In this document: positions 5,584-14,228 of the stretch, in pieces | Numbering within the stretch: position 1 is the stretch's first letter | Layout: every line of letters starts with the position of its first letter | NCBI GenBank assembly: GCA_902778455.1 | Contig: CACYXR010000004.1 | Span: forward strand, 124,001 to 188,000 | From: an uncultured Selenomonadaceae bacterium | GTDB taxonomy: Bacteria > Bacillota > Negativicutes > Selenomonadales > Selenomonadaceae | DNA: 64,000 bases | Direction: 5' to 3' | Notes under the pieces: model-generated | Databases searched by the model: none | Told to the model about the DNA's origin: nothing | What the model saw: the letters and a program-made list of their open reading frames with translations, nothing else | Translations under genes and position numbers: made by a program

Positions 5584-7469
5584 ATGACCGGATTTTTTAT
5601 CAGGCATCCATTGTCGGCGATCGTCGCCGCGCTGCTTTTGACCATATTCGGGCTGCTTTCCGCCTTTTCGCTGCCCATCGCCCAGTACCCGGAAATCGCG
5701 CCGCCCACGGTGATGGTTTCCACCACGTATATCGGCGCTGACGCGGAAGTGCTCAACGACACGGTGGCGCAGGTCATCGAGAACGAAGTGAACGGCGTCG
5801 AGGGCATCGACTATATGAAGTCCACCTCCGATTCCTCGGGGGCCTATTACCTCGAAATCGTTTTCCGTCCAGAAATCGACGGCGACACCGCCGCGGTCAA
5901 GGTGCAGAACCGCATCTCCTCCGCGCTGCCGCAGCTGCCCGACGAGGTGCAGTCCTACGGCGTCACCACGACAAAGAGCTCCGAGGACATGGCGCTGGTC
6001 ATTTCGCTGATCTCGCCGAAGGGCAGTTATGACAGCATGTTCCTGAAAAACTATGCCAAGTGTATTTCATGGACAAGATCAAGCGTGTCTACGGTATCGG
6101 CTCCGTCACGGAGTACACCGACGATTTCGCCATACGGATCTGGCTGAACCCGGAAAAGCTCGCTTCGCACGGGCTCACGGTGACGGACGTCTCCGACGCC
6201 GTCAAGGAGCAGCACAAGCGGGCCTCCGTCGGCGCGCTGGGCAAGATGCCCGCCGACGAAGGGCAGGAAACCCAGTCCATCGGCCGCGCCGCAAATCGAA
6301 GGGAAACGCCGGAAGACTTTGCAAGTATTATTCTTCGTGCAGAGCCGGACGGCCGCTATGTGCGGCTCGGGGACGTGGCGGAAATCACCAACGGCGTACG
6401 GGACATGAATTATGTTTCGCTGCAGGACGGGCTGGAAACCGCCGCCTTCAGCGTTGCCCTGACGAACGACGCCAACGCCGTCGAGACCATCGGCCAGGTC
6501 AACGCGATTCTCGTGGAGGAGTCCCGCTCCTTTCCTCCGGACATGGAGTACCGCACCCTCGTTGACAGCACCCGCTATGTGGCGGAGTCGATGAAGGAAG
6601 TATCGAATACCTTCTGGGAGGCGCTGGCGCTCGTCGTCGCCATCATGTACCTGTTTCTGCGCGATCCGCGCGCCACCGTTATCGCCGTGCTGACGATTCC
6701 CGTCTCGCTGATCGCCACCTTTGCCGCCTTCAGGATTGCCGGTTTTTCCATCAACACGCTGACACTGTTCGCGATGGTGCTGGCCATCGGCATGGTGGTG
6801 GACGACGCGATCGTGGTCATCGAGAGCGTCGAGCAGCATCTCGAAAAGGGCGGCGGCATCCGCGAGGCGACGACGGCGGCCATGGACGCACTGGAGGAAA
6901 TCGCCAAAGAGGTCGCGCCGACGGGATTCCAGATCGCGTGGACGGGCGAGAGCCGCCAGCTGCGGGACGCCCAGGGCACGGTGCTGAAAGTGATGGGGCT
7001 TTCGCTGCTTTTCGTGTTCCTCTGCCTCGTCGCTCTCTATGAATCGTGGTCGATTCCCTTCTCCGTTTTATTGAGCGTCCCGGCGGGCGTCTTCGGCGCG
7101 CTCCTCACAGAACTTGCGATTGGGAGAGCGGGCAGTATCTATATGCAGATCGGCATCCTGATGGTCATCGGCCTCGCGGCGAAAAACGCGATCCTGATCG
7201 CCGAGTTCGCGAAGCTCCGCATGGACGCGGGCATGAAAGCCGTTCCCGCCGTATTCGCGGCGGCGAAGCTTCGGCTTCGTCCGATCCTGATGCCAGCGCT
7301 GACCTCGATCATCGGCTGCCTGCCGCTGGCCTTCGCTTCCGGCACGGGGGCGGAGGCAAGGGTCGGCATGGGCGCGGCGGTAGTCGGCGGCATGAGCGCC
7401 GCAACGATTCTCGGCCTGTTCTTCGTGCCGGTGCTGTTTGCACTGTTGGCACGAAAAAAGCTGAGATAA
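5584..7469 (+). pseudogene. RND multidrug efflux transporter (AcrB type), frameshifted and internally deleted
   Basis: Two frames together encode the start and end of an AcrB-like pump. The first frame (from ATG 5584) runs through TM1 and the first periplasmic part to NYAK (codon at 6058-6060). The protein then continues in another frame from 6060 as VYFMDKIKRVYGIGSV to the stop at 7469. Near 6880-6895 the sequence jumps from the helix after TM4 to the segment before TM8. About 400 residues are missing relative to E. coli AcrB, including TM5-TM7 and the second periplasmic loop. The proton-relay residues are retained: DD in TM4 (VVDDAIVVIE) and K in TM10 (AAKNAILIAEF). No adaptor or outer-membrane partner gene is adjacent. 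About 630 residues remain of the usual 1030-1050. Confidence 0.88.
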
Positions 7470-7635: not shown

Positions 7636-8496
7636 ATGAGAAACCTAAATGTGAAAGAATATAAAAAATTTGAAGATATTAAACAGGTTCGTGCAGACGG
7701 ATCCGAGTTTTGGAGTGCACGCGAACTGGCAATCGCACTTGATTACACCCAATGGAGAAACTTTAGCAAAGTGATTGACAGGGCAATGATAGCTTGCGAG
7801 AACAGTGGGCACAGTGTTTCAAGCGATTTTGCCGAGGTCAGCAAAATCGTGGAAGCGGGGGCAACCTCCAAGCCGAAAAAGGATTATGAATTGTCCCGTT
7901 ACGCTTGTTATCTTGTCGTACAGAACGGCGATCCACGAAAAGAAGTGATTGCGCTCGGCCAAACATATTTTGCAATCCAGACCTATCGTCAGGAAGTGGC
8001 TGACCATTTCAACCAACTTGACGAAGACAGAAGGCGGCTTGTCGTCCGGGGCGATATCAAGCAGTGGAATCAACTGCTGGCCGAAACCGCACACGACGCC
8101 GGAGTTATTACGAACGAAGAGTTTGCAATCTTCCAAAATGCTGGATATATGGGGCTATACGGAGGTCTTGACGTAGAGGATATTCACGCCAGAAAAGAAC
8201 TTGAAATCGGGCAGAAAATCTTGGATTATATGGGCAGCACGGAATTGATTGCCAACCTGTTCCGAATATCACAGACCGAGGAAAAGCTCCGCAAAGATCA
8301 TGTACAAGGAGCAGCGGCGGCAACAAGTGTCCATTATAACGTCGGTCGTGAAGTACGCTCCGCCATCAAGAAGATCGGCGGCACAATGCCGGAGGATTTG
8401 CCAAAGCCGGAAAAAAGTATCCAACAAATTGAGAAGGAGCAGCTTGCACGGCTTAGAGCAAAAGCGAAAAAAGGAAAAATCATGTTGGACGAATAA
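7636..8496 (+). CDS. dinD: DNA damage-inducible protein D (DinD)
   Basis: A 286-residue protein matching the DinD family throughout. The N-terminus reads FEDIKQVRADGSEFWSAREL, then YTQWRNFSKVI; the middle has YELSRYACYLVVQNGDPRKE, and the C-terminal half has NVGREVRSAIKKIGG.MPEDLP. E. coli DinD is SOS-induced and inhibits RecA-driven strand exchange. Here the leader is 100 bases long with an ATG preceded by GGAGGAAAG. Codon use is visibly more AT-rich than in the housekeeping genes of this window, consistent with horizontal acquisition. It is followed directly by the first copy of the repeat that carries the Gly-rich gene. Confidence 0.92.
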   Translation: MRNLNVKEYKKFEDIKQVRADGSEFWSARELAIALDYTQWRNFSKVIDRAMIACENSGHSVSSDFAEVSKIVEAGATSKPKKDYELSRYACYLVVQNGDPRKEVIALGQTYFAIQTYRQEVADHFNQLDEDRRRLVVRGDIKQWNQLLAETAHDAGVITNEEFAIFQNAGYMGLYGGLDVEDIHARKELEIGQKILDYMGSTELIANLFRISQTEEKLRKDHVQGAAAATSVHYNVGREVRSAIKKIGGTMPEDLPKPEKSIQQIEKEQLARLRAKAKKGKIMLDE

Positions 8497-8497
8497 T

Positions 8498-8662
8498 TTT
8501 TTCGTTTCGACACACTTCCGACACAATCGTCCTTTATACTTCAAACCATCAAAGAAAGCTTCTCTAAAAAAGAAAGGATGATTCAAATGAAGAAATTGAT
8601 GTTGGCGGCTATGGCGGCAATGGTGATCGGTTCGACGGGGACGGCGCTGGCGGCGACGCCGG
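8498..8662 (+). repeat. Long direct repeat, copy 1 (promoter, leader and signal-peptide codons)
   Basis: About 165 bases nearly identical to 12945-13110, starting one base after the dinD stop codon and running through the signal-peptide codons of the Gly-rich gene. It includes two CGACACA direct repeats 11 bases apart (8508-8514, 8519-8525) and a TATACT -10-like hexamer (8535-8540) with no good -35. This suggests an activator-dependent promoter (inference). Confidence 0.85.
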
Positions 8663-8826
8663 ATCGCGGGTTCTGCGGGGACAACGCTCCGGCCATCGAG
8701 ATGAGCTACGCGCATTGCGGCGGAGGATACCATCACGGCGGTCGCGGAGGACGTGGCGGCTACGGATGCGGCGGAGGCTATGGCGACGGGTACTGCTGGG
8801 GCAACGAAAACAATAACGAAGGCTGA
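8587..8826 (+). CDS. Secreted Gly/Cys/His-rich small protein, copy 1
   Basis: A 79-residue precursor. Residues 1-22 are a Sec signal peptide (MKKLML core, Ala-x-Ala before the cut GTALA|ATP). The mature part of about 57 residues has four cysteines (FCGD, AHCGGG, YGCGGG, GYCWGN), a His pair (YHHGG) and GGRGGRGGYG repeats. ATG 8587 is chosen over ATG 8578 because AGAAAGGA lies 8 bases upstream of it. The protein is secreted or periplasmic and may bind metal or form disulfides. No family is recognised. The second copy is at 13035-13262. Confidence 0.8.
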   Translation: MKKLMLAAMAAMVIGSTGTALAATPDRGFCGDNAPAIEMSYAHCGGGYHHGGRGGRGGYGCGGGYGDGYCWGNENNNEG

Positions 8827-8837
8827 GATGCAAAATA

Positions 8838-8880
8838 GACGGGCATCGGGGAGTATATACTCCTCAATGCCCGTCTTTTA
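8838..8880. terminator. Bidirectional terminator between the Gly-rich gene and the AlkZ-related gene
   Basis: GACGGGCAT pairs with ATGCCCGTC, with GAGTATATACTC as a self-complementary inner stem (8838-8875) and a T-run after it. It lies between convergent genes. Confidence 0.85.
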
Positions 8881-8887
8881 TTCTGAT

Positions 8888-9568
8888 CTAACCAAGAATC
8901 TTCAAAAGCTGCTTCTCGTTTGCCCTCGGCAGTATCCTTCGGAAATGGGTGAGCAACCGTTCTTTCGATTCTTCCGGCTTCCGTTGGTACACCGCCCCCG
9001 TAAAGGATTTGCCATAGTACTTCTCCGGCGTGGTGTACCGCGCCACGCCCCATCCATACGGATTGCCTTTCTTGTCCGTCATATATGTGAAATCAGCCAC
9101 AACAAGGTAACATTCCATCTGCAGCCGGGTAATAATGGTGTCAAAGCCTTTCTTCCCGCCCTTGCGGAACCCTCCCAGCTTTTTCAGTTCCTTCGACAGC
9201 ACAGAATCATCCCGCTGGTCAACCATGTCATAGACCAGCTTGTTATCATGAGACGCCTTGCCATCATCATAGAGCGCGTCGAAGTCGTAGCCGTCCCGCC
9301 GCCAGTTGGCGAGGTCTGGATACCACTCGCGGCTTACGAACCCAGCCTTCTTGTTGAACAGTTTTCCGTAGACGCATTTCTTCCGTCGCGCAATCGAGCC
9401 TTTCCAGCCCCATGCCTCCCAAGATCCATCGAAACCCGTGAACCAGTATTTCCCGTCAATACGTTCTTCGAGAGAAAAGCCCTCTATGTCATTGGCGAAG
9501 AAAGGGAGAAAACCCTGTTTCTCCACGACTTTTTCGATGTCCTCCAAGGATTTGATTTGTTTAGCCAC
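8888..9568 (-). CDS. AlkZ-related conserved protein
   Basis: A 226-residue protein resembling a family often labelled AlkZ-related. Recognisable pieces are GFLPFFANDIEGFSLEE near the N-terminus, YGKLFNKKAGFVSREWYPDL, RRDGYDFDALYDDGKAS and GFDTIITRLQMECYLVV. AlkZ proteins are DNA glycosylases for crosslinks or alkylation damage; whether this shorter relative has that activity is unknown. The GTG at 9568 is preferred over the GTG at 9592 because GAGGGA lies 6 bases upstream. It is the third gene of a minus-strand set with the 46-aa peptide and the DUF1643 gene. The set is AT-richer than its surroundings. Confidence 0.7.
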   Translation of the reverse strand: MAKQIKSLEDIEKVVEKQGFLPFFANDIEGFSLEERIDGKYWFTGFDGSWEAWGWKGSIARRKKCVYGKLFNKKAGFVSREWYPDLANWRRDGYDFDALYDDGKASHDNKLVYDMVDQRDDSVLSKELKKLGGFRKGGKKGFDTIITRLQMECYLVVADFTYMTDKKGNPYGWGVARYTTPEKYYGKSFTGAVYQRKPEESKERLLTHFRRILPRANEKQLLKILG

Positions 9569-9595
9569 ATTGATTCCCTCGCGCTTCCACACCGC

Positions 9596-9736
9596 TCATA
9601 ACAAGCACCAATACACAGCAAGCCCGCAGATAATAAAGCCGCGCATGAAGTCTTCCCAGACAGTTTTTTGTCCACGCCGTAATACTGCGAAAATGTGATA
9701 CGCAGTTATCACTACCATTATTGCTTTCATTGCCAT
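9596..9736 (-). CDS. 46-residue membrane peptide
   Basis: A short ORF (MAMKAIMVVITAYHIFAVLR, then a charged link GQKTVWEDF, then MRGFIICGLAVYWCLL) with two hydrophobic segments. AGAGGAG lies about 11 bases upstream of its ATG. It begins 17 bases after the DUF1643 gene ends and finishes 27 bases before the AlkZ-related gene starts, all on one strand, which supports a real three-gene operon. No family is recognised. The two helices would place both ends on the same side of the membrane. Confidence 0.6.
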   Translation of the reverse strand: MAMKAIMVVITAYHIFAVLRRGQKTVWEDFMRGFIICGLAVYWCLL

Positions 9737-9753
9737 TCTATAGATTACTCCTC

Positions 9754-10854
9754 TCAATGCGCCGTTTCTTCACGCGTCAAAATGTACTCCTCAATCTTAA
9801 ATGAGAGAAATTTTCCCTTTTCCGGAGCATAGAGCGGATGCCGAGGATGCCCTTTCCCAGTTAACTCGCCATAACGCAGCCATGAAGCACAGCCCTTCAG
9901 CAAGTCATAGATTTCTCTTAACGAATGGTATAAAAACTGATTTCCGGGCTTGTCAATACTGGCTCCCCATGCACACCAAATCGCATCTATATGAAAGAAC
10001 CGTTTCACCGCATCAAGCACCATCAGATTATTCTCTCTCCATATCTCATTCTCATACAGCTCATCAGGTTTCTTTGTCCGCTGCGGATGCAGATTCACCA
10101 TAATCCACCCATCATACCCCTGATTTCGAGTAATCTTGCGGACTCTTTTAGTCGTTGGATCATCATCCCCAGGTTTAGCACTACTTGGATTAACACCAAA
10201 AACAAGCATGTTCTTTTTTCCCGGTTGTCCCAGCACGTATCTCTCATTGTCGTTTCCGAGGTAAACCCATAATTTTTGCAGTCCACTCAATTTTTCCGAA
10301 TCAAGTTTCTTAGGCTGGTAATCCTGATAAGACAATTCACATATCGTTTGCCAAACCTCGTCCGGCTGCCAATCAAGAGACTCTTCTTCAATCCCGAGGT
10401 TACTTTTATACGCATCAATTACGTCCTCGTGTACAAACATGACACAAGCTTCACCAAGATACCGCCAGTACCACGCACCGACTTTATTAGTTTTTGCACG
10501 CTGAATCTCGTCGATTGCGGGGAAAATCCCTGCCAGTTTTCTTGTGACACGTCCATCGGAAAGATTCACCCTGTATATTGCGCGGTCAATGTGGTAAAAA
10601 TCGCAGTAATTATCGTAATCGCGGCTGTTAACAAAGCAAAACCTCATCCCATTAAATAATGTCGAAGAAATTTCGCGCGGCGTAAGTTCGATTGGCTCCG
10701 GCGGATCGTAGTCACAGGCATCATCAAAATAACCATATTCGGCATCATCTTCAATTTGTTCTTCTAAAGTCATCGGTCTCTCATCCTTGTTCCTTAAAGC
10801 CTCGCCAGCTTTTTTGACCGCATCATCCATCCACTCCTTGCTCCACTTTTTCAT
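9754..10854 (-). CDS. DUF1643-domain protein with unique N-terminal half
   Basis: A 366-residue protein. The C-terminal 165 residues match DUF1643, seen in LVFGVNPSSAKPGDDDPT, GYDGWIMVNLHPQRTKKP and HPLYAPEKGKFLSF; this family of unknown biochemistry often appears on mobile or phage-like islands. The N-terminal 200 residues are unrecognised, with an acidic stretch (EEQIEDDAEYGYFDDACDYD). ATG 10854 has an excellent AGGAGGTGG 6-7 bases upstream, so the longer frame to 10956 is rejected. It leads the operon with the 46-aa peptide and the AlkZ-related gene. Confidence 0.8.
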   Translation of the reverse strand: MKKWSKEWMDDAVKKAGEALRNKDERPMTLEEQIEDDAEYGYFDDACDYDPPEPIELTPREISSTLFNGMRFCFVNSRDYDNYCDFYHIDRAIYRVNLSDGRVTRKLAGIFPAIDEIQRAKTNKVGAWYWRYLGEACVMFVHEDVIDAYKSNLGIEEESLDWQPDEVWQTICELSYQDYQPKKLDSEKLSGLQKLWVYLGNDNERYVLGQPGKKNMLVFGVNPSSAKPGDDDPTTKRVRKITRNQGYDGWIMVNLHPQRTKKPDELYENEIWRENNLMVLDAVKRFFHIDAIWCAWGASIDKPGNQFLYHSLREIYDLLKGCASWLRYGELTGKGHPRHPLYAPEKGKFLSFKIEEYILTREETAH

Positions 10855-10882
10855 TGATTTCCACCTCCTGTGATCTAATATT

Positions 10883-10891
10883 ATTATACCA
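10883..10891 (-). promoter_or_regulatory. Extended -10 promoter of the DUF1643 operon
   Basis: On the minus strand TGGTATAAT forms an extended -10 element 29 bases upstream of the DUF1643 start codon. There is no convincing -35. Confidence 0.5.
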
Positions 10892-10925
10892 CAACCCATG
10901 TGCATATTTTTACATGTACAAAAAA

Positions 10926-10968
10926 GACGGGCATCGAGAAAATACAAAATCCTCAATGCCCGTCTTTT
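10926..10968. terminator. Bidirectional hairpin terminator
   Basis: GACGGGCAT (10926-10934) pairs with ATGCCCGTC (10956-10964), flanked by A5 and T4. Its arms are the same words as in the terminator at 8838, so the two hairpins bracket the minus-strand DUF1643 set. Confidence 0.75.
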
Positions 10969-11061
10969 CTATTTCGCCGCACAAAAAATGACGGCAACCG
11001 CCGCCAGCACATACGCTATATTCCTTTGCCGCTCAATGCGCCGCTTCGTCCTTATAGACAA
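10969..11061 (-). CDS. Possible 30-residue single-span peptide
   Basis: From a TTG at 11061 (AGGGA upstream) a short frame encodes a basic start (SIRTKRRIERQR) and one hydrophobic helix (NIAYVLAAVAVIFCAAK), and stops at the edge of the hairpin at 10926-10964. Length and start codon make it weak. Its sequence around GCGGCGCATTGAG also echoes the 3' end of the DUF1643 gene, so it could be a relic. Confidence 0.25.
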   Translation of the reverse strand: MSIRTKRRIERQRNIAYVLAAVAVIFCAAK

Positions 11062-11083
11062 AAAAGGCCATTCCCTATAAGAT

Positions 11084-11112
11084 TTGCTATTATTTCATGC
11101 GAAGAATATAAT
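11084..11112 (+). promoter_or_regulatory. Promoter of the alpha/beta hydrolase
   Basis: TTGCTA (11084-11089), a 17-base spacer and TATAAT (11107-11112). From the -10 onward, 16 bases are identical to the dinD promoter region at 7518-7533. Confidence 0.65.
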
Positions 11113-11204
11113 ATTTTCAAATATTCGTGTGGAATCAACGGGACCTATCCCCGTGCGAAACCCGCCAAGGCTGTGCGCGTAAAAATCATCGAGGAGGAAA
11201 TGAA

Positions 11205-12158
11205 ATGAAAACGAAACTTGCCATTGCATTTCTCAACGTGTTTTGGCTCTTTGGAAGCGTCCTTTCCGCCATCGGTCAGGCCGCAGAAACGCCGCCGATA
11301 CGCTATTTCATGCAGCCGGAAAGCGTCAAGGGCAGCGATACACCTTACGGCAACAACCCGGCTGTCGGCCATTACGTCCAGGCGGATGATGCGAAAATCT
11401 ACTATGAGGTGTACGGCAAAGGACAGCCGATTTTCGTTTTTCACGGCGGCGGCGTAGGTACGCCTTATGAGATGGGAAGCATCATCGACCGACTGCGGAC
11501 GGATCATCAGGTCGTTGTCGTTTCGACGCGCGGGCATGGGCGCTCGGAAATCGGCCACAAGCCTTTGACGTATGAGCAAAAAGCTGACGACATGATTGCC
11601 GTGATGCGAAAAGTCACGGACGCGCCGGCCTCGATTATCGGATTCAGCGACGGCGCGTACACCGCCTACAAGGTCGCCGCCATGTACCCCGAAGCGGTGG
11701 AACGCGTCGCCGCTATCGGCGCGGGCACCCTTCACCCCGGATTTTTTACGGCGGGCACATTGAACGTCGCCGACATGGAGAAAATCGACAAGGCTTTTAT
11801 CGAGCAGCAAAAGCGAATCATGCCGGAACCGGAAAGATTGCAGGAGTTTTGGACAGATTACATGAACTTTTGGAGCCAAATGAACGTCGGCGCCGAGGTC
11901 TTCGGCGCTATCCGCTGCCCTGTCCTGCTCATCGCCGGGGACGAGGACGACCACGCCCCCATCGCCACCATGATGGAAGCGCACCAAATGATTCCCGATT
12001 CCCGTCTCTGCATCGTCCCGAAATCATGGCATACAGCGTTTCTCGACAATTTCGAGGTGACCTGGGCGGCGATGACTCCGTTCCTCCACGCGGATATAAA
12101 AGACTTGCAGCCAAGCCGCAAAGTGGAATATAACGCGCATTACCATTACCGGGAATAA
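11205..12158 (+). CDS. Exported alpha/beta hydrolase
   Basis: A 317-residue enzyme with an N-terminal signal peptide (about residues 1-25, hydrophobic core IAFLNVFWLFGSVLSAIG), so it acts outside the cytoplasm. The fold motifs are the oxyanion-hole HGGG, the nucleophile elbow GFSDG (Ser), the acid in AGDEDDHAP and the catalytic His in SWHTAFL. These residues complete a catalytic triad for an esterase- or hydrolase-type reaction; the substrate is not predictable. ATG 11205 has GAGGAGG 7 bases upstream; the longer frame from 11127 is non-coding leader. It has its own promoter and stands alone. Confidence 0.85.
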   Translation: MKTKLAIAFLNVFWLFGSVLSAIGQAAETPPIRYFMQPESVKGSDTPYGNNPAVGHYVQADDAKIYYEVYGKGQPIFVFHGGGVGTPYEMGSIIDRLRTDHQVVVVSTRGHGRSEIGHKPLTYEQKADDMIAVMRKVTDAPASIIGFSDGAYTAYKVAAMYPEAVERVAAIGAGTLHPGFFTAGTLNVADMEKIDKAFIEQQKRIMPEPERLQEFWTDYMNFWSQMNVGAEVFGAIRCPVLLIAGDEDDHAPIATMMEAHQMIPDSRLCIVPKSWHTAFLDNFEVTWAAMTPFLHADIKDLQPSRKVEYNAHYHYRE

Positions 12159-12241
12159 AAAGCCATCCTTCTTTTCGTGCGGGCAGGGCTTGTTATTCTT
12201 CCGCGCGGAGCATAGAATATCATCAAAAAAGGAAACTTACC

Positions 12242-12934
12242 ATGAGCGAGGAATGTTTGATTTGCAAGTCGCCGCTCGTCTACGCGGAAAACGATGAAAC
12301 GATGGAATGTGCTCTTTGCCATAAGCGGGAGGCAAGCAAAACAAAATGCGCCAACGGCCATTACATCTGCAACGACTGCCACACAAAGGGCATGGACGCT
12401 CTGATTGGATTTTGTTTCTCCGAGACCTCCAAAAATCCAATCGAGATTCTGCGGAAGATGATGCAAATGCCGTTCTGCCACATGCACGAGCCGGAACATC
12501 ATGTCATGGTGGGCGCTGCGCTTTTGACGGCGTTCAAGAATGCCGGTGGAGACATTGATCTCCATACTTCATTACTTGAAATGATGAATCGCGGGAAAAG
12601 CGTTCCCGGCGGCGCCTGCGGATTCTGGGGCGCCTGCGGCGCGGGCATAAGCACGGGAATGTTTATGTCCATTATCTCGAAATCGACGCCGCTTACCAAC
12701 GAACCCTTCGCATTATCCCATCAGATGACCTCGAAAGCCCTAGCTAGGATTGGCGAGATTGGCGGCCCCCGCTGCTGCAAACGTGATTCTTTCCTGTCCG
12801 TTTTGACGGCTATTGATTTTGTCGAAAAACATTTCGGCGTAAAGATGGAATCCGAAAAAGTTGTCTGCGGATTCTGGCCGCAAAACAGCCAATGTATCGA
12901 AGCTCGCTGTCCGTTTTTCAAGGCAAGGCAATAA
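12242..12934 (+). CDS. DUF5714-domain cysteine-rich protein
   Basis: A 230-residue protein with an N-terminal zinc-ribbon-like pair (CLICKSP, CALCHK) and a further CANGHYICNDC cluster. The DUF5714 core follows, with FCHMHEPEHHVMVGAALLTA, PGGACGFWGACGAGISTGMF and IGGPRCCKR. DUF5714 proteins are typically found in anaerobes, sometimes near radical-SAM or methyltransferase genes; the activity is unknown. The many Cys and His residues suggest metal or cofactor binding. The start at 12242 has AAGGAA upstream. The second copy of the Gly-rich repeat begins 10 bases after its stop codon. Confidence 0.82.
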   Translation: MSEECLICKSPLVYAENDETMECALCHKREASKTKCANGHYICNDCHTKGMDALIGFCFSETSKNPIEILRKMMQMPFCHMHEPEHHVMVGAALLTAFKNAGGDIDLHTSLLEMMNRGKSVPGGACGFWGACGAGISTGMFMSIISKSTPLTNEPFALSHQMTSKALARIGEIGGPRCCKRDSFLSVLTAIDFVEKHFGVKMESEKVVCGFWPQNSQCIEARCPFFKARQ

Positions 12935-12944
12935 TTTGAAAAAA

Positions 12945-13110
12945 TTTTTCGTTTCGACACACTTCCGACACAATCGTCCTTTATACTTCAAACCATCAAA
13001 GAAAACTTCTTTACAAAAAGAAAGGATGATTCAAATGAAAAAAATGATGTTGGCGGCTATGGCGGCAATGGTGATCGGTTCGACGGGGACGGCGCTGGCG
13101 GCGACGCCGG
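12945..13110 (+). repeat. Long direct repeat, copy 2
   Basis: Near-identical to 8498-8662, again starting just after a stop codon. It includes the CGACACA pair (12955-12961, 12966-12972) and TATACT (12982-12987). The two copies lie in the same orientation 4.45 kb apart, so recombination between them could delete everything in between. Confidence 0.85.
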
Positions 13111-13262
13111 GAGCCGTGGACTGCAGGGACAACGCGCCCTGCGTCGAAACGAGCTATGCACACTGCGGCGGAGGGTACTACGGCGGCGGCCGCGGAGGAC
13201 GCGGCGGCTACGGCTGCGGCGGTGGCGGGTACTGCTACGGCTACGAAAACCAAGAAGGATAA
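13035..13262 (+). CDS. Secreted Gly/Cys/His-rich small protein, copy 2
   Basis: A 75-residue precursor. The signal peptide differs from copy 1 by a single residue, and the mature part is divergent but alike: five cysteines (DCRD, APCVE, AHCGGG, YGCGGG, GYCYG), a GGRGGRGGYG repeat and a short acidic tail. Conservation of the cysteines in the second half against a changed first part suggests selection on a Cys/Gly-rich structure. ATG 13035 has AGAAAGGA 8 bases upstream. A perfect terminator follows, so it is a single-gene unit. Confidence 0.8.
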   Translation: MKKMMLAAMAAMVIGSTGTALAATPGAVDCRDNAPCVETSYAHCGGGYYGGGRGGRGGYGCGGGGYCYGYENQEG

Positions 13263-13270
13263 TCAAGAAA

Positions 13271-13319
13271 CAAGGAGGGCGTTGAGGAATTTTTCTTCCT
13301 CAACGCCCTCCTTGTTTTA
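13271..13319. terminator. Strong terminator between convergent genes
   Basis: A perfect 19-bp stem (13271-13289 with 13296-13314) with a six-base loop, followed by TTTTAT. Confidence 0.9.
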
Positions 13320-13388: not shown

Positions 13389-14228
13389 TTACTTGCCGTC
13401 GCCGAGAATCGTCGCGACTCCGATATCGTATTTCTTTATGGGAACTCCGTTCCGGGCGTCGTCTTCCCCCTGCACTTTTCCGGCCAGGATGCGCTCCACG
13501 CCCGTGTAAAGCGGAACAATCAAATCCGGGGAAACGGGGAAGCTGCCGTGGGCCGGGTAGATGGTATCAAATCGGTCTTTAAAGTTTTCCAGGCGCTTCA
13601 GGCTCAGCACATAGGCGTGAAGCTCCCGCTGAACGCCGAACATATAGATGTTCCCGTCCTGTATCGGATCGCCGCTGATCAGAACGCGGTTCTTCACGTC
13701 CAGCACGGCAATGCTGCCCGGCGTATGCCCCGGCAGCCCGATGATCTCAAGCTCACGGTCCCCGAGGTCGAGTTTGTCCCCGTGCTCCACGGGAACGATG
13801 ATGCCTTTCCTGTTCTCGCCGTGGTAATAATTTGAGGCCTCGGCCATGCTCATATAGAACGTCCCGAATTCGTTGTTGCCTCCCACATGATCCCGGTCGG
13901 CATGGGTATTCATTAGCTTCACGGGAAGACTCGTCAGGCTCTCGGCAACCGCTTTCATGCTTGGCACGTGGAATCCGCTGTCGATCAGCAGCGCTTCCTT
14001 CGTTCCGGTCAAAAGAAAACTGCGGACCATGTCTTCCTGAATCCACCAGGTATTCTCGTTGATGGGAAAGATTTGCACTTCTCCGTGCTTGATGTCATAC
14101 GTCCCGGTGTTCCTGTCGGCTGCCAGCGCGGAGGAATATCCCGCGCCGTTTCCGCCGATCGGAAGCATCGGACTCAGAGCGGCCAGCCCCATCAGTTTTA
14201 CGAAATCACGGCGTGAACATTTTTTCAT
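13389..14228 (-). CDS. Tat-exported MBL-fold metallo-hydrolase
   Basis: A 279-residue protein. The N-terminus has a twin-arginine signal (SRRDFVKL, then a hydrophobic stretch), so it is exported folded with its metals. The metallo-beta-lactamase motifs are present: THADRDH (HxxxDH), a His in LPGHTPGS, an Asp in ISGDP and a His in YPAHGSF. That is a full dinuclear zinc or iron site. The family covers lactonases, thiolesterases and sulfatases; this member's substrate is unknown. The ATG has AAAGGAG 10 bases upstream. It converges on the Gly-rich gene across a shared terminator. Confidence 0.87.
   Translation of the reverse strand: MKKCSRRDFVKLMGLAALSPMLPIGGNGAGYSSALAADRNTGTYDIKHGEVQIFPINENTWWIQEDMVRSFLLTGTKEALLIDSGFHVPSMKAVAESLTSLPVKLMNTHADRDHVGGNNEFGTFYMSMAEASNYYHGENRKGIIVPVEHGDKLDLGDRELEIIGLPGHTPGSIAVLDVKNRVLISGDPIQDGNIYMFGVQRELHAYVLSLKRLENFKDRFDTIYPAHGSFPVSPDLIVPLYTGVERILAGKVQGEDDARNGVPIKKYDIGVATILGDGK

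What the first reader, a model, noticed from the sequence alone, without database searches (positions are those of the whole stretch)
8498..13262. Duplicated secreted Gly/Cys/His-rich mini-protein bracketing a 4.4-kb cassette
Two genes (8587-8826, 13035-13262) share about 165 bases of promoter, leader and signal-peptide sequence, while the mature parts diverge but keep Cys, His and GGRGG repeats. They match no family I know. Each copy begins just after a neighbour's stop codon, and between them lie an AlkZ-related gene, a 46-aa membrane peptide, a DUF1643 gene, an exported hydrolase and a DUF5714 gene. The arrangement suggests repeated insertion of a mobile gene unit or a cassette that can be lost by recombination.
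Basis: partly seen in the sequence, partly recalled or inferred. Interest (0 to 1): 0.65.

Follow-up and report, generated by a model that had tools for sequence, protein, structure and literature searches.

The report
Duplicated signal-regulated secreted mini-protein genes
The two repeated genes belong to a family of tiny exported glycine-, cysteine- and histidine-rich proteins whose shared DNA is a dedicated switch, probably worked by a two-protein sensor system that in related bacteria sits right beside the gene.

Summary
In detail: two near-identical promoter/leader/signal-peptide blocks precede two diverged Gly/Cys/His/Tyr-rich mini-proteins flanking about 4.4 kb. The interpretation needs changing. 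These are two of four intact copies (plus two remnants) of a Schwartzia gene family. 10 of 11 genus genomes examined carry 1-5 copies, with relatives across Selenomonadaceae. What the copies share is a regulated promoter: two 7-bp direct repeats 11 bp apart (YGACACA-N4-YGACACA), exactly 9 bp before TATACT. The genome has four such sites, all before family genes; 29 of 30 exact hits in 189 family genomes precede a family gene, and the other ends at a contig edge. In related genera the single gene lies divergently beside an MtrA/RpaB-like response regulator and a WalK-like sensor kinase with a His/Met/Cys-rich periplasmic loop, and the same motif recurs in the regulator's own promoter, including this genome's. 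I conclude the mini-proteins are periplasmic outputs, probably feedback/ligand-buffering accessories, of this two-component system (CpxP/ZraP-like in arrangement, unrelated in sequence), unlinked and multiplied in Schwartzia. Flanks recombine at the copies, but no mobility gene, plasmid or phage association was found. Regulation is well supported; periplasmic function and metal binding are inference.

The parts
8508..8540 (+). Promoter motif of copy A: CGACACA-CTTC-CGACACA-9 bp-TATACT (two direct repeats, 11-bp period, no usable -35)
   Evidence: exact motif, PWM score 42.2; the only two window sites at score 5 or more are A and B
8587..8826 (+). Copy A: exported 79-aa Gly/Cys/His/Tyr-rich mini-protein
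   Evidence: signal peptide judged by eye
8834..8879 (+). Hairpin/terminator GACGGGCAT...ATGCCCGTC after copy A; the same hairpin follows the C18 copy and a C19 remnant
12955..12987 (+). Promoter motif of copy B, identical to A
13035..13262 (+). Copy B: exported 75-aa mini-protein
13268..13317 (.). Perfect 22-bp hairpin after copy B (terminator-like)
7636..8496 (+). dinD (DNA damage-inducible protein D), upstream neighbour of copy A
   Evidence: NF008573, 395 bits against cut-off 242
8888..9592 (-). AlkZ-related gene inside the bracketed segment
   Evidence: PF24741, E 6.8e-82
9596..9736 (-). 46-aa membrane peptide
   Evidence: ORF only
9754..10854 (-). DUF1643 gene
   Evidence: PF07799, E 5e-27
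10920..10968 (.). Orphan copy of the GACGGGCAT hairpin, next to a dispersed small tail-anchored peptide (minus strand, ending near 10972)
11205..12158 (+). Exported alpha/beta hydrolase
   Evidence: PF00561, E 2.6e-15
12242..12934 (+). DUF5714 gene, upstream neighbour of copy B
   Evidence: PF18978, E 2e-70
13389..14228 (-). Metallo-beta-lactamase-fold gene downstream of copy B; the flank is found after another copy in G010

Best explanation
The two genes encode periplasmic mini-proteins that form the dedicated output of an OmpR-type two-component system: an MtrA/RpaB/YycF-like response regulator plus a Cache-HAMP-HisKA sensor kinase with a His/Met/Cys-rich loop. In this genome the system is on contig C8 (L155:384-2671). 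When the kinase fires, the regulator binds the two 7-bp repeats that stand in for a -35 box and switches on its own operon and all mini-protein copies together. In the ancestral arrangement, still present in sister genera, the mini-protein gene lies divergently beside the regulator. In Schwartzia it was unlinked, duplicated into 3-5 dispersed copies that keep the promoter and export signal while the mature parts vary, and the copies recombine with each other. Shown by sequence: the family, the promoter, the divergent linkage, and the motif in the regulator's own promoter. Inferred: binding by this regulator, activation rather than repression, and export. Inferred and weaker: the mature protein binds the ligand that the kinase loop senses (metal or thiol-reactive stress) and so buffers it and damps the kinase, as CpxP and ZraP do for their kinases.
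For: Copies: 4 in own genome; 10 of 11 genus genomes examined. Promoter: of 32 protein-defined copies, 28 carry the exact motif, 3 differ by one base, 1 has a roughly 150-bp insertion between motif and gene. Repeats and -10 carry 1.6-2 bits per column (1.0 at one degenerate repeat position), the 9-bp spacer 0.3-1.0. 30 exact motif hits in 189 family genomes, 0 in reversed controls: 29 precede a family gene, 1 ends 1 nt later at a contig edge. Linkage: regulator orthologue in 45 of 189 genomes; a family gene lies divergent 117-466 nt away in 17 of 45 and in 4 more by special cases (1.2 kb away beyond a recombinase gene, a contig edge, two by ORF scan). Autoregulation: a PWM built only from mini-protein promoters finds a sense site in the regulator's own promoter at 15 of 19 non-linked loci with at most 1 of 300 shuffles as good, own genome included; besides the C18 and C19 copies it is the only site at score 10 or more in 276 kb (both strands counted) of other own-genome sequence. 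Three of the four loci without a site (G169, G170, G137) are in genomes without any family hit. Sensor loop with CR[RHQY] in 27 of 30 kinases. Streptomyces MtrA site GtnAcC-n5-GTnAcn and mycobacterial GTCACA repeats match the GTAACA-N5-GTCACA form seen in sister genera (PMC13189361, passages).
Against: No expression or binding data. Six g16 genomes (G025, G183-G187) keep a family gene with a GTCACA-type site but have no orthologous regulator at E<=1e-65; their best regulators are 42-47% identical to the g16 regulator, as paralogues are. In Schwartzia the system is not beside any copy. The PWM includes sites chosen by eye from sister genera. Own regulator promoter site is degenerate (score 18.8 against 42.2). 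Four genus MAGs (G002, G005, G006, G007) lack the regulator at E<=1e-65; it lies near contig ends (beside the 16S 5' end here, recalled primer sequence), which MAGs often lose. AlphaFold gives no fold for the mini-protein (pLDDT 43), so nothing structural supports ligand binding or kinase contact. L177 reaches 0 of 300 but with a low score (6.1).
Confidence: 0.62

Rival explanations
1. The mini-proteins are end effectors of the same two-component system (periplasmic metal/thiol buffer or envelope protectant) with no feedback on the kinase.
For: Multiplication to 3-5 copies fits a dosage-driven protective product; Cys/His/Tyr/Gly composition fits metal or oxidant buffering.
Against: In sister genera a single copy sits divergent from the kinase operon, the arrangement typical of feedback accessories; the sensor loop and mini-protein share His/Gly/Cys-rich character (by eye, not tested).
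Confidence: 0.25
2. Another OmpR-type regulator (a WalR/PhoB-like paralogue present in all genomes) controls the motif, and the linkage reflects history only.
For: Six g16 genomes keep gene and site without the orthologous regulator.
Against: Motif in the regulator's own promoter at 15 of 19 non-linked loci, missing in three genomes that lack the family gene; no site at score 10 or more in the fetched loci of the paralogous regulators on C9 and C14.
Confidence: 0.12
3. One reading: a mobile gene unit or a cassette lost by recombination between the copies.
For: Dispersed copies, remnants, changed flanks.
Against: No mobility gene or defined ends; none in phages or plasmids; the shared block is a conserved promoter; deletion product not seen.
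Confidence: 0.08
4. Secreted antimicrobial peptides (bacteriocin-like) with varied mature parts.
For: Conserved export signal, diverse mature sequence.
Against: No immunity, maturation or dedicated transporter gene among the neighbours inspected; linkage to a sensor system instead.
Confidence: 0.04

Closest known systems
CpxP with CpxRA (E. coli)
   Same: Small periplasmic protein strongly induced by its own OmpR-type two-component system and feeding back on it (PMC4985592, abstract and passages); divergent gene order is recalled.
   Different: Mini-proteins are about 55 aa, Gly/Cys/His-rich, no confident fold, no Pfam match at E<=0.1; feedback untested.
ZraP with ZraSR
   Same: Periplasmic accessory that answers a zinc-responsive system, with the operon autoregulated (PMC7657598, passages).
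   Different: ZraR is sigma54-dependent; here the regulator is OmpR-type and the mini-proteins match no Pfam family.
MtrA/MtrB (Actinobacteria)
   Same: Regulator's second-best NCBIfam match; direct-repeat site with the same 11-bp period.
   Different: 216 bits against the MtrA cut-off of 300; different phylum and kinase sensor.
WalK (YycG) sensor kinase
   Same: Best NCBIfam for the kinase core and best PDB fold match, with an extracytoplasmic Cache domain.
   Different: 228 bits against cut-off 725; no PAS domain found; carries an inserted His/Met/Cys loop.

Membership tests
CpxP/Spy/ZraP (LTXXQ) family | sequence match to the family profile | tested here: not met
   no Pfam match at E<=0.1
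CpxP/Spy/ZraP (LTXXQ) family | helical hook-shaped dimer fold (recalled) | tested here: inconclusive
   AlphaFold pLDDT 43, no fold
Periplasmic accessory of a two-component system (works like) | gene controlled by the system it serves | tested here: inconclusive
   shared promoter motif and divergent linkage; no expression data
Periplasmic accessory of a two-component system (works like) | modulates the kinase | not testable with these tools
   needs experiment
MtrA response regulator | NCBIfam equivalog cut-off | tested here: not met
   216 against 300 bits
MtrA response regulator | direct-repeat GTnAC-type site, 11-bp period | tested here: met
   GTAACA-N5-GTCACA in g3 and g16 compared with PMC13189361
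OmpR/PhoB-type response regulator | Response_reg plus Trans_reg_C domains | tested here: met
WalK sensor kinase | NCBIfam equivalog cut-off | tested here: not met
   228 against 725 bits
Mobile element | transposase/integrase or defined ends | tested here: not met
   none in the unit; flanks listed

The most novel reading that the evidence does not exclude
A previously undescribed envelope or metal-stress circuit of the Negativicutes: a WalK/MtrA-like sensor system whose kinase senses through a His/Met/Cys loop and is damped by disordered mini-proteins that imitate that loop. In Schwartzia the feedback gene was cut loose and multiplied into a recombining family with variable mature parts, so the strength and ligand range of feedback evolve by gene dosage, and the copies also act as recombination points in the chromosome.
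Probability: 0.3. Interest if true: 0.68.

Novelty: new variant of a known kind. Interest (0 to 1): 0.55.

Why it matters
It turns orphan genes with no family into the likely regulon of a specific sensor system, with a 33-bp signature that can be tested directly. Little is known of envelope signalling in diderm Firmicutes: searches for Negativicutes + envelope stress + two-component system gave 0 papers, and Selenomonas + two-component system + response regulator + periplasmic gave 6, none on such a system by title and abstract start. It also offers a rare case of a probable feedback protein multiplied away from its kinase.

Tried and rejected
Sigma-70 promoter: the consensus scan lists no site at the motif; TATACT lies 11 or 22 nt from GACA-type hexamers, so an activator is probably needed. 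Phage or plasmid origin: no hits; the one viral-contig hit looks like host DNA beside serine recombinases. Known protein families: none; PDB profile search 0 hits. Profile search hits above about 1e-5 are mostly signal-peptide matches, many inside long frames (about 450 aa), and were ignored unless beside the regulator. Rfam on the contig end beside the regulator: 0. Fold of the mini-protein: no confident model, so no fold search was run on it. Positional orthology as the rule: rejected, because copy A is closest (98%) to G009's copy at the C18-type site, not to the dinD-site copy of G002 (92%). Other literature searches gave nothing on this family (listings only).

Rows dropped: of 30 regulator loci 10 were left out as linked and 1 (L159) had no upstream sequence; 15 of the 45 regulator genomes had no locus under the cap. 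In one search the ORF filter required MK[KR] and at least 85 nt upstream, so copies with other starts (for example G004's) are not among the 32. In one search some of the loci listed (for example L059, L060, L068) gave no copy with that ORF filter and have no row.
Full report
What is there. The two ORFs lie at 8587-8826 and 13035-13262. Their 5' parts repeat as an 81-nt block at 94% and a 212-nt block at 86%; promoter/leader is 95%, signal peptide 97% and mature part 75% identical. The mature proteins (counted from Thr24) are 56 and 52 aa with 19 and 18 Gly, 4 and 5 Cys, 3 and 1 His, 5 and 7 Tyr. No Pfam, NCBIfam or PHROGs family fits.

The family. The genome (2.6 Mb, 34 contigs) holds two more intact copies, on C19 and C18, a tail remnant 3.1 kb before the C18 copy, and a decayed copy on C19. 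Of 60 genomes searched (own and relatives), 13 have a match: 10 of 11 genomes of the genus, with 1-5 copies each, and three outside it, weakly. Named records among these are called Schwartzia sp. from rumen samples, which gives the genus. A profile search reached further genera of Selenomonadaceae.

The shared block is a promoter. Upstream of the copies lies YGACACA-N4-YGACACA-N9-TATACT. In 32 protein-defined copies, 28 have it exactly, 3 with one change, and 1 has it displaced by an insertion. The repeats and the -10 are nearly invariant while the 9-bp spacer is not. In the own genome the motif occurs four times, all before the four copies, with none else up to 3 mismatches and none for the reversed control. 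Across 189 family genomes there are 30 exact hits in 12 genomes, control 0; 29 precede a family gene, one ends directly at a contig edge. An 11-bp-period direct repeat in place of a -35 box is the signature of an OmpR/PhoB-type regulator site (general knowledge).

The regulator. In genera g3 and g16 the single family gene is transcribed away from a response regulator followed by a sensor kinase. The regulator orthologue is found once in each of 45 of 189 genomes. In 17 of 45 a family gene is divergent at 117-466 nt; in four more the link is seen through an insertion (G180, 1.2 kb), a contig edge (G198) or by ORF scan (G012, G024). The site facing the gene there is GTAACA-N5-GTCACA with the same 9-bp step to CATAAT. 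This is the published form of MtrA sites: GtnAcC-n5-GTnAcn in Streptomyces, GTCACA repeats in Mycobacterium (PMC13189361, passages; also PMC2945938, passages). The regulator's best NCBIfam matches are RpaB and MtrA, both below cut-off.

The own genome has this system on C8 (regulator 62%, kinase 45% identical to the g16 proteins), at a contig edge beside what looks like the 16S rRNA start, not beside a copy. Its promoter contains CGACATA-TTTT-TGCCATA-N9-TATCAT. A weight matrix made only from mini-protein promoters finds such a site, in sense, in the regulator's promoter at 15 of 19 non-linked loci (at most 1 of 300 shuffles as good); L172, L174, L175 and L176 fail. The genomes behind L174-L176 have no family hit; of the 15 with a site, 12 have a family hit at E<=0.001, 2 have one by ORF scan only, and 1 (G210) has none. 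In the window the matrix finds only copies A and B at score 5 or more, and in 276 kb (both strands counted) of other own-genome loci only the regulator promoter and the C18 and C19 copies at score 10 or more.

The kinase. It is a WalK-like histidine kinase with HAMP, HisKA and HATPase domains; the sensor models as a Cache domain (best PDB match WalK, E 1.9e-5) with a disordered insert at residues 56-104. That stretch is rich in His, Met, Gly and Arg, and a following CR[RHQY] is present in 27 of 30 kinases. The mini-proteins carry GYC[WY] and His/Gly runs; the likeness is by eye and untested.

Evolution in Schwartzia. Copies sit at recurring sites, but flanks and gene types are mixed. G010 joins the flank upstream of this genome's C18 copy to the flank downstream of copy B; G001 has dinD-side sequence, a copy, then the C18 upstream region, then another copy. 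Two leader types and two signal-peptide types occur in all four combinations, and copy A is closest to a copy at another site in G009 (98%). This is what recombination or gene conversion among dispersed paralogues would give. MAG mis-joins at repeats could produce some of these junctions. No mobility gene belongs to the unit.

Most likely working. Sensor activated, regulator binds the repeats, own operon and all mini-protein copies rise together; the mini-proteins act in the periplasm, most likely binding the sensed ligand and damping the kinase. The arrangement copies that of CpxP and ZraP (PMC4985592; PMC7657598; passages), without sequence relation. Regulon membership I hold at about 0.8, feedback at about 0.4.

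Against. Six g16 genomes retain the gene and a site without an orthologous regulator. No transcription, binding or export has been measured. The mini-protein gives no structure model.

Noticed in passing
window 10972-11094 (minus strand); L156, L033, L056, L061: A second dispersed element: a small tail-anchored peptide ending RRIERQRNIAYVLAAVAVIFCAAK, in a roughly 130-bp block 84-97% identical between loci and species, beside the GACGGGCAT hairpin.
   Followed up: partly
window 8834-8879, 10920-10968; L156:7609, 8506; L157 about 2894: Near-identical bidirectional hairpin GACGGGCAT...ATGCCCGTC recurs at copies and elsewhere; the 9-mer ATGCCCGTC occurs 8 times in the window against 0.83 expected. 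Possibly a repeated terminator or uptake-type signal.
   Followed up: partly
L086:1563-1735 (G007): About 150-bp insertion between motif and start codon of one copy; not examined further.
   Followed up: no
L121 (G180), 6537-7244: MerR-type/resolvase gene of IS607 kind (recalled) lies between regulator and mini-protein gene.
   Followed up: no
L091: 4.4-kb viral contig with two large serine recombinases next to a family copy at its end.
   Followed up: no
L068 (G004): Copy with a one-base change of frame just after the start codon; pseudogene, other start or assembly error.
   Followed up: no
window 12242-12934: DUF5714 protein also matches the metal-binding selenoprotein family MbdU below its cut-off (132 of 600 bits).
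   Followed up: no
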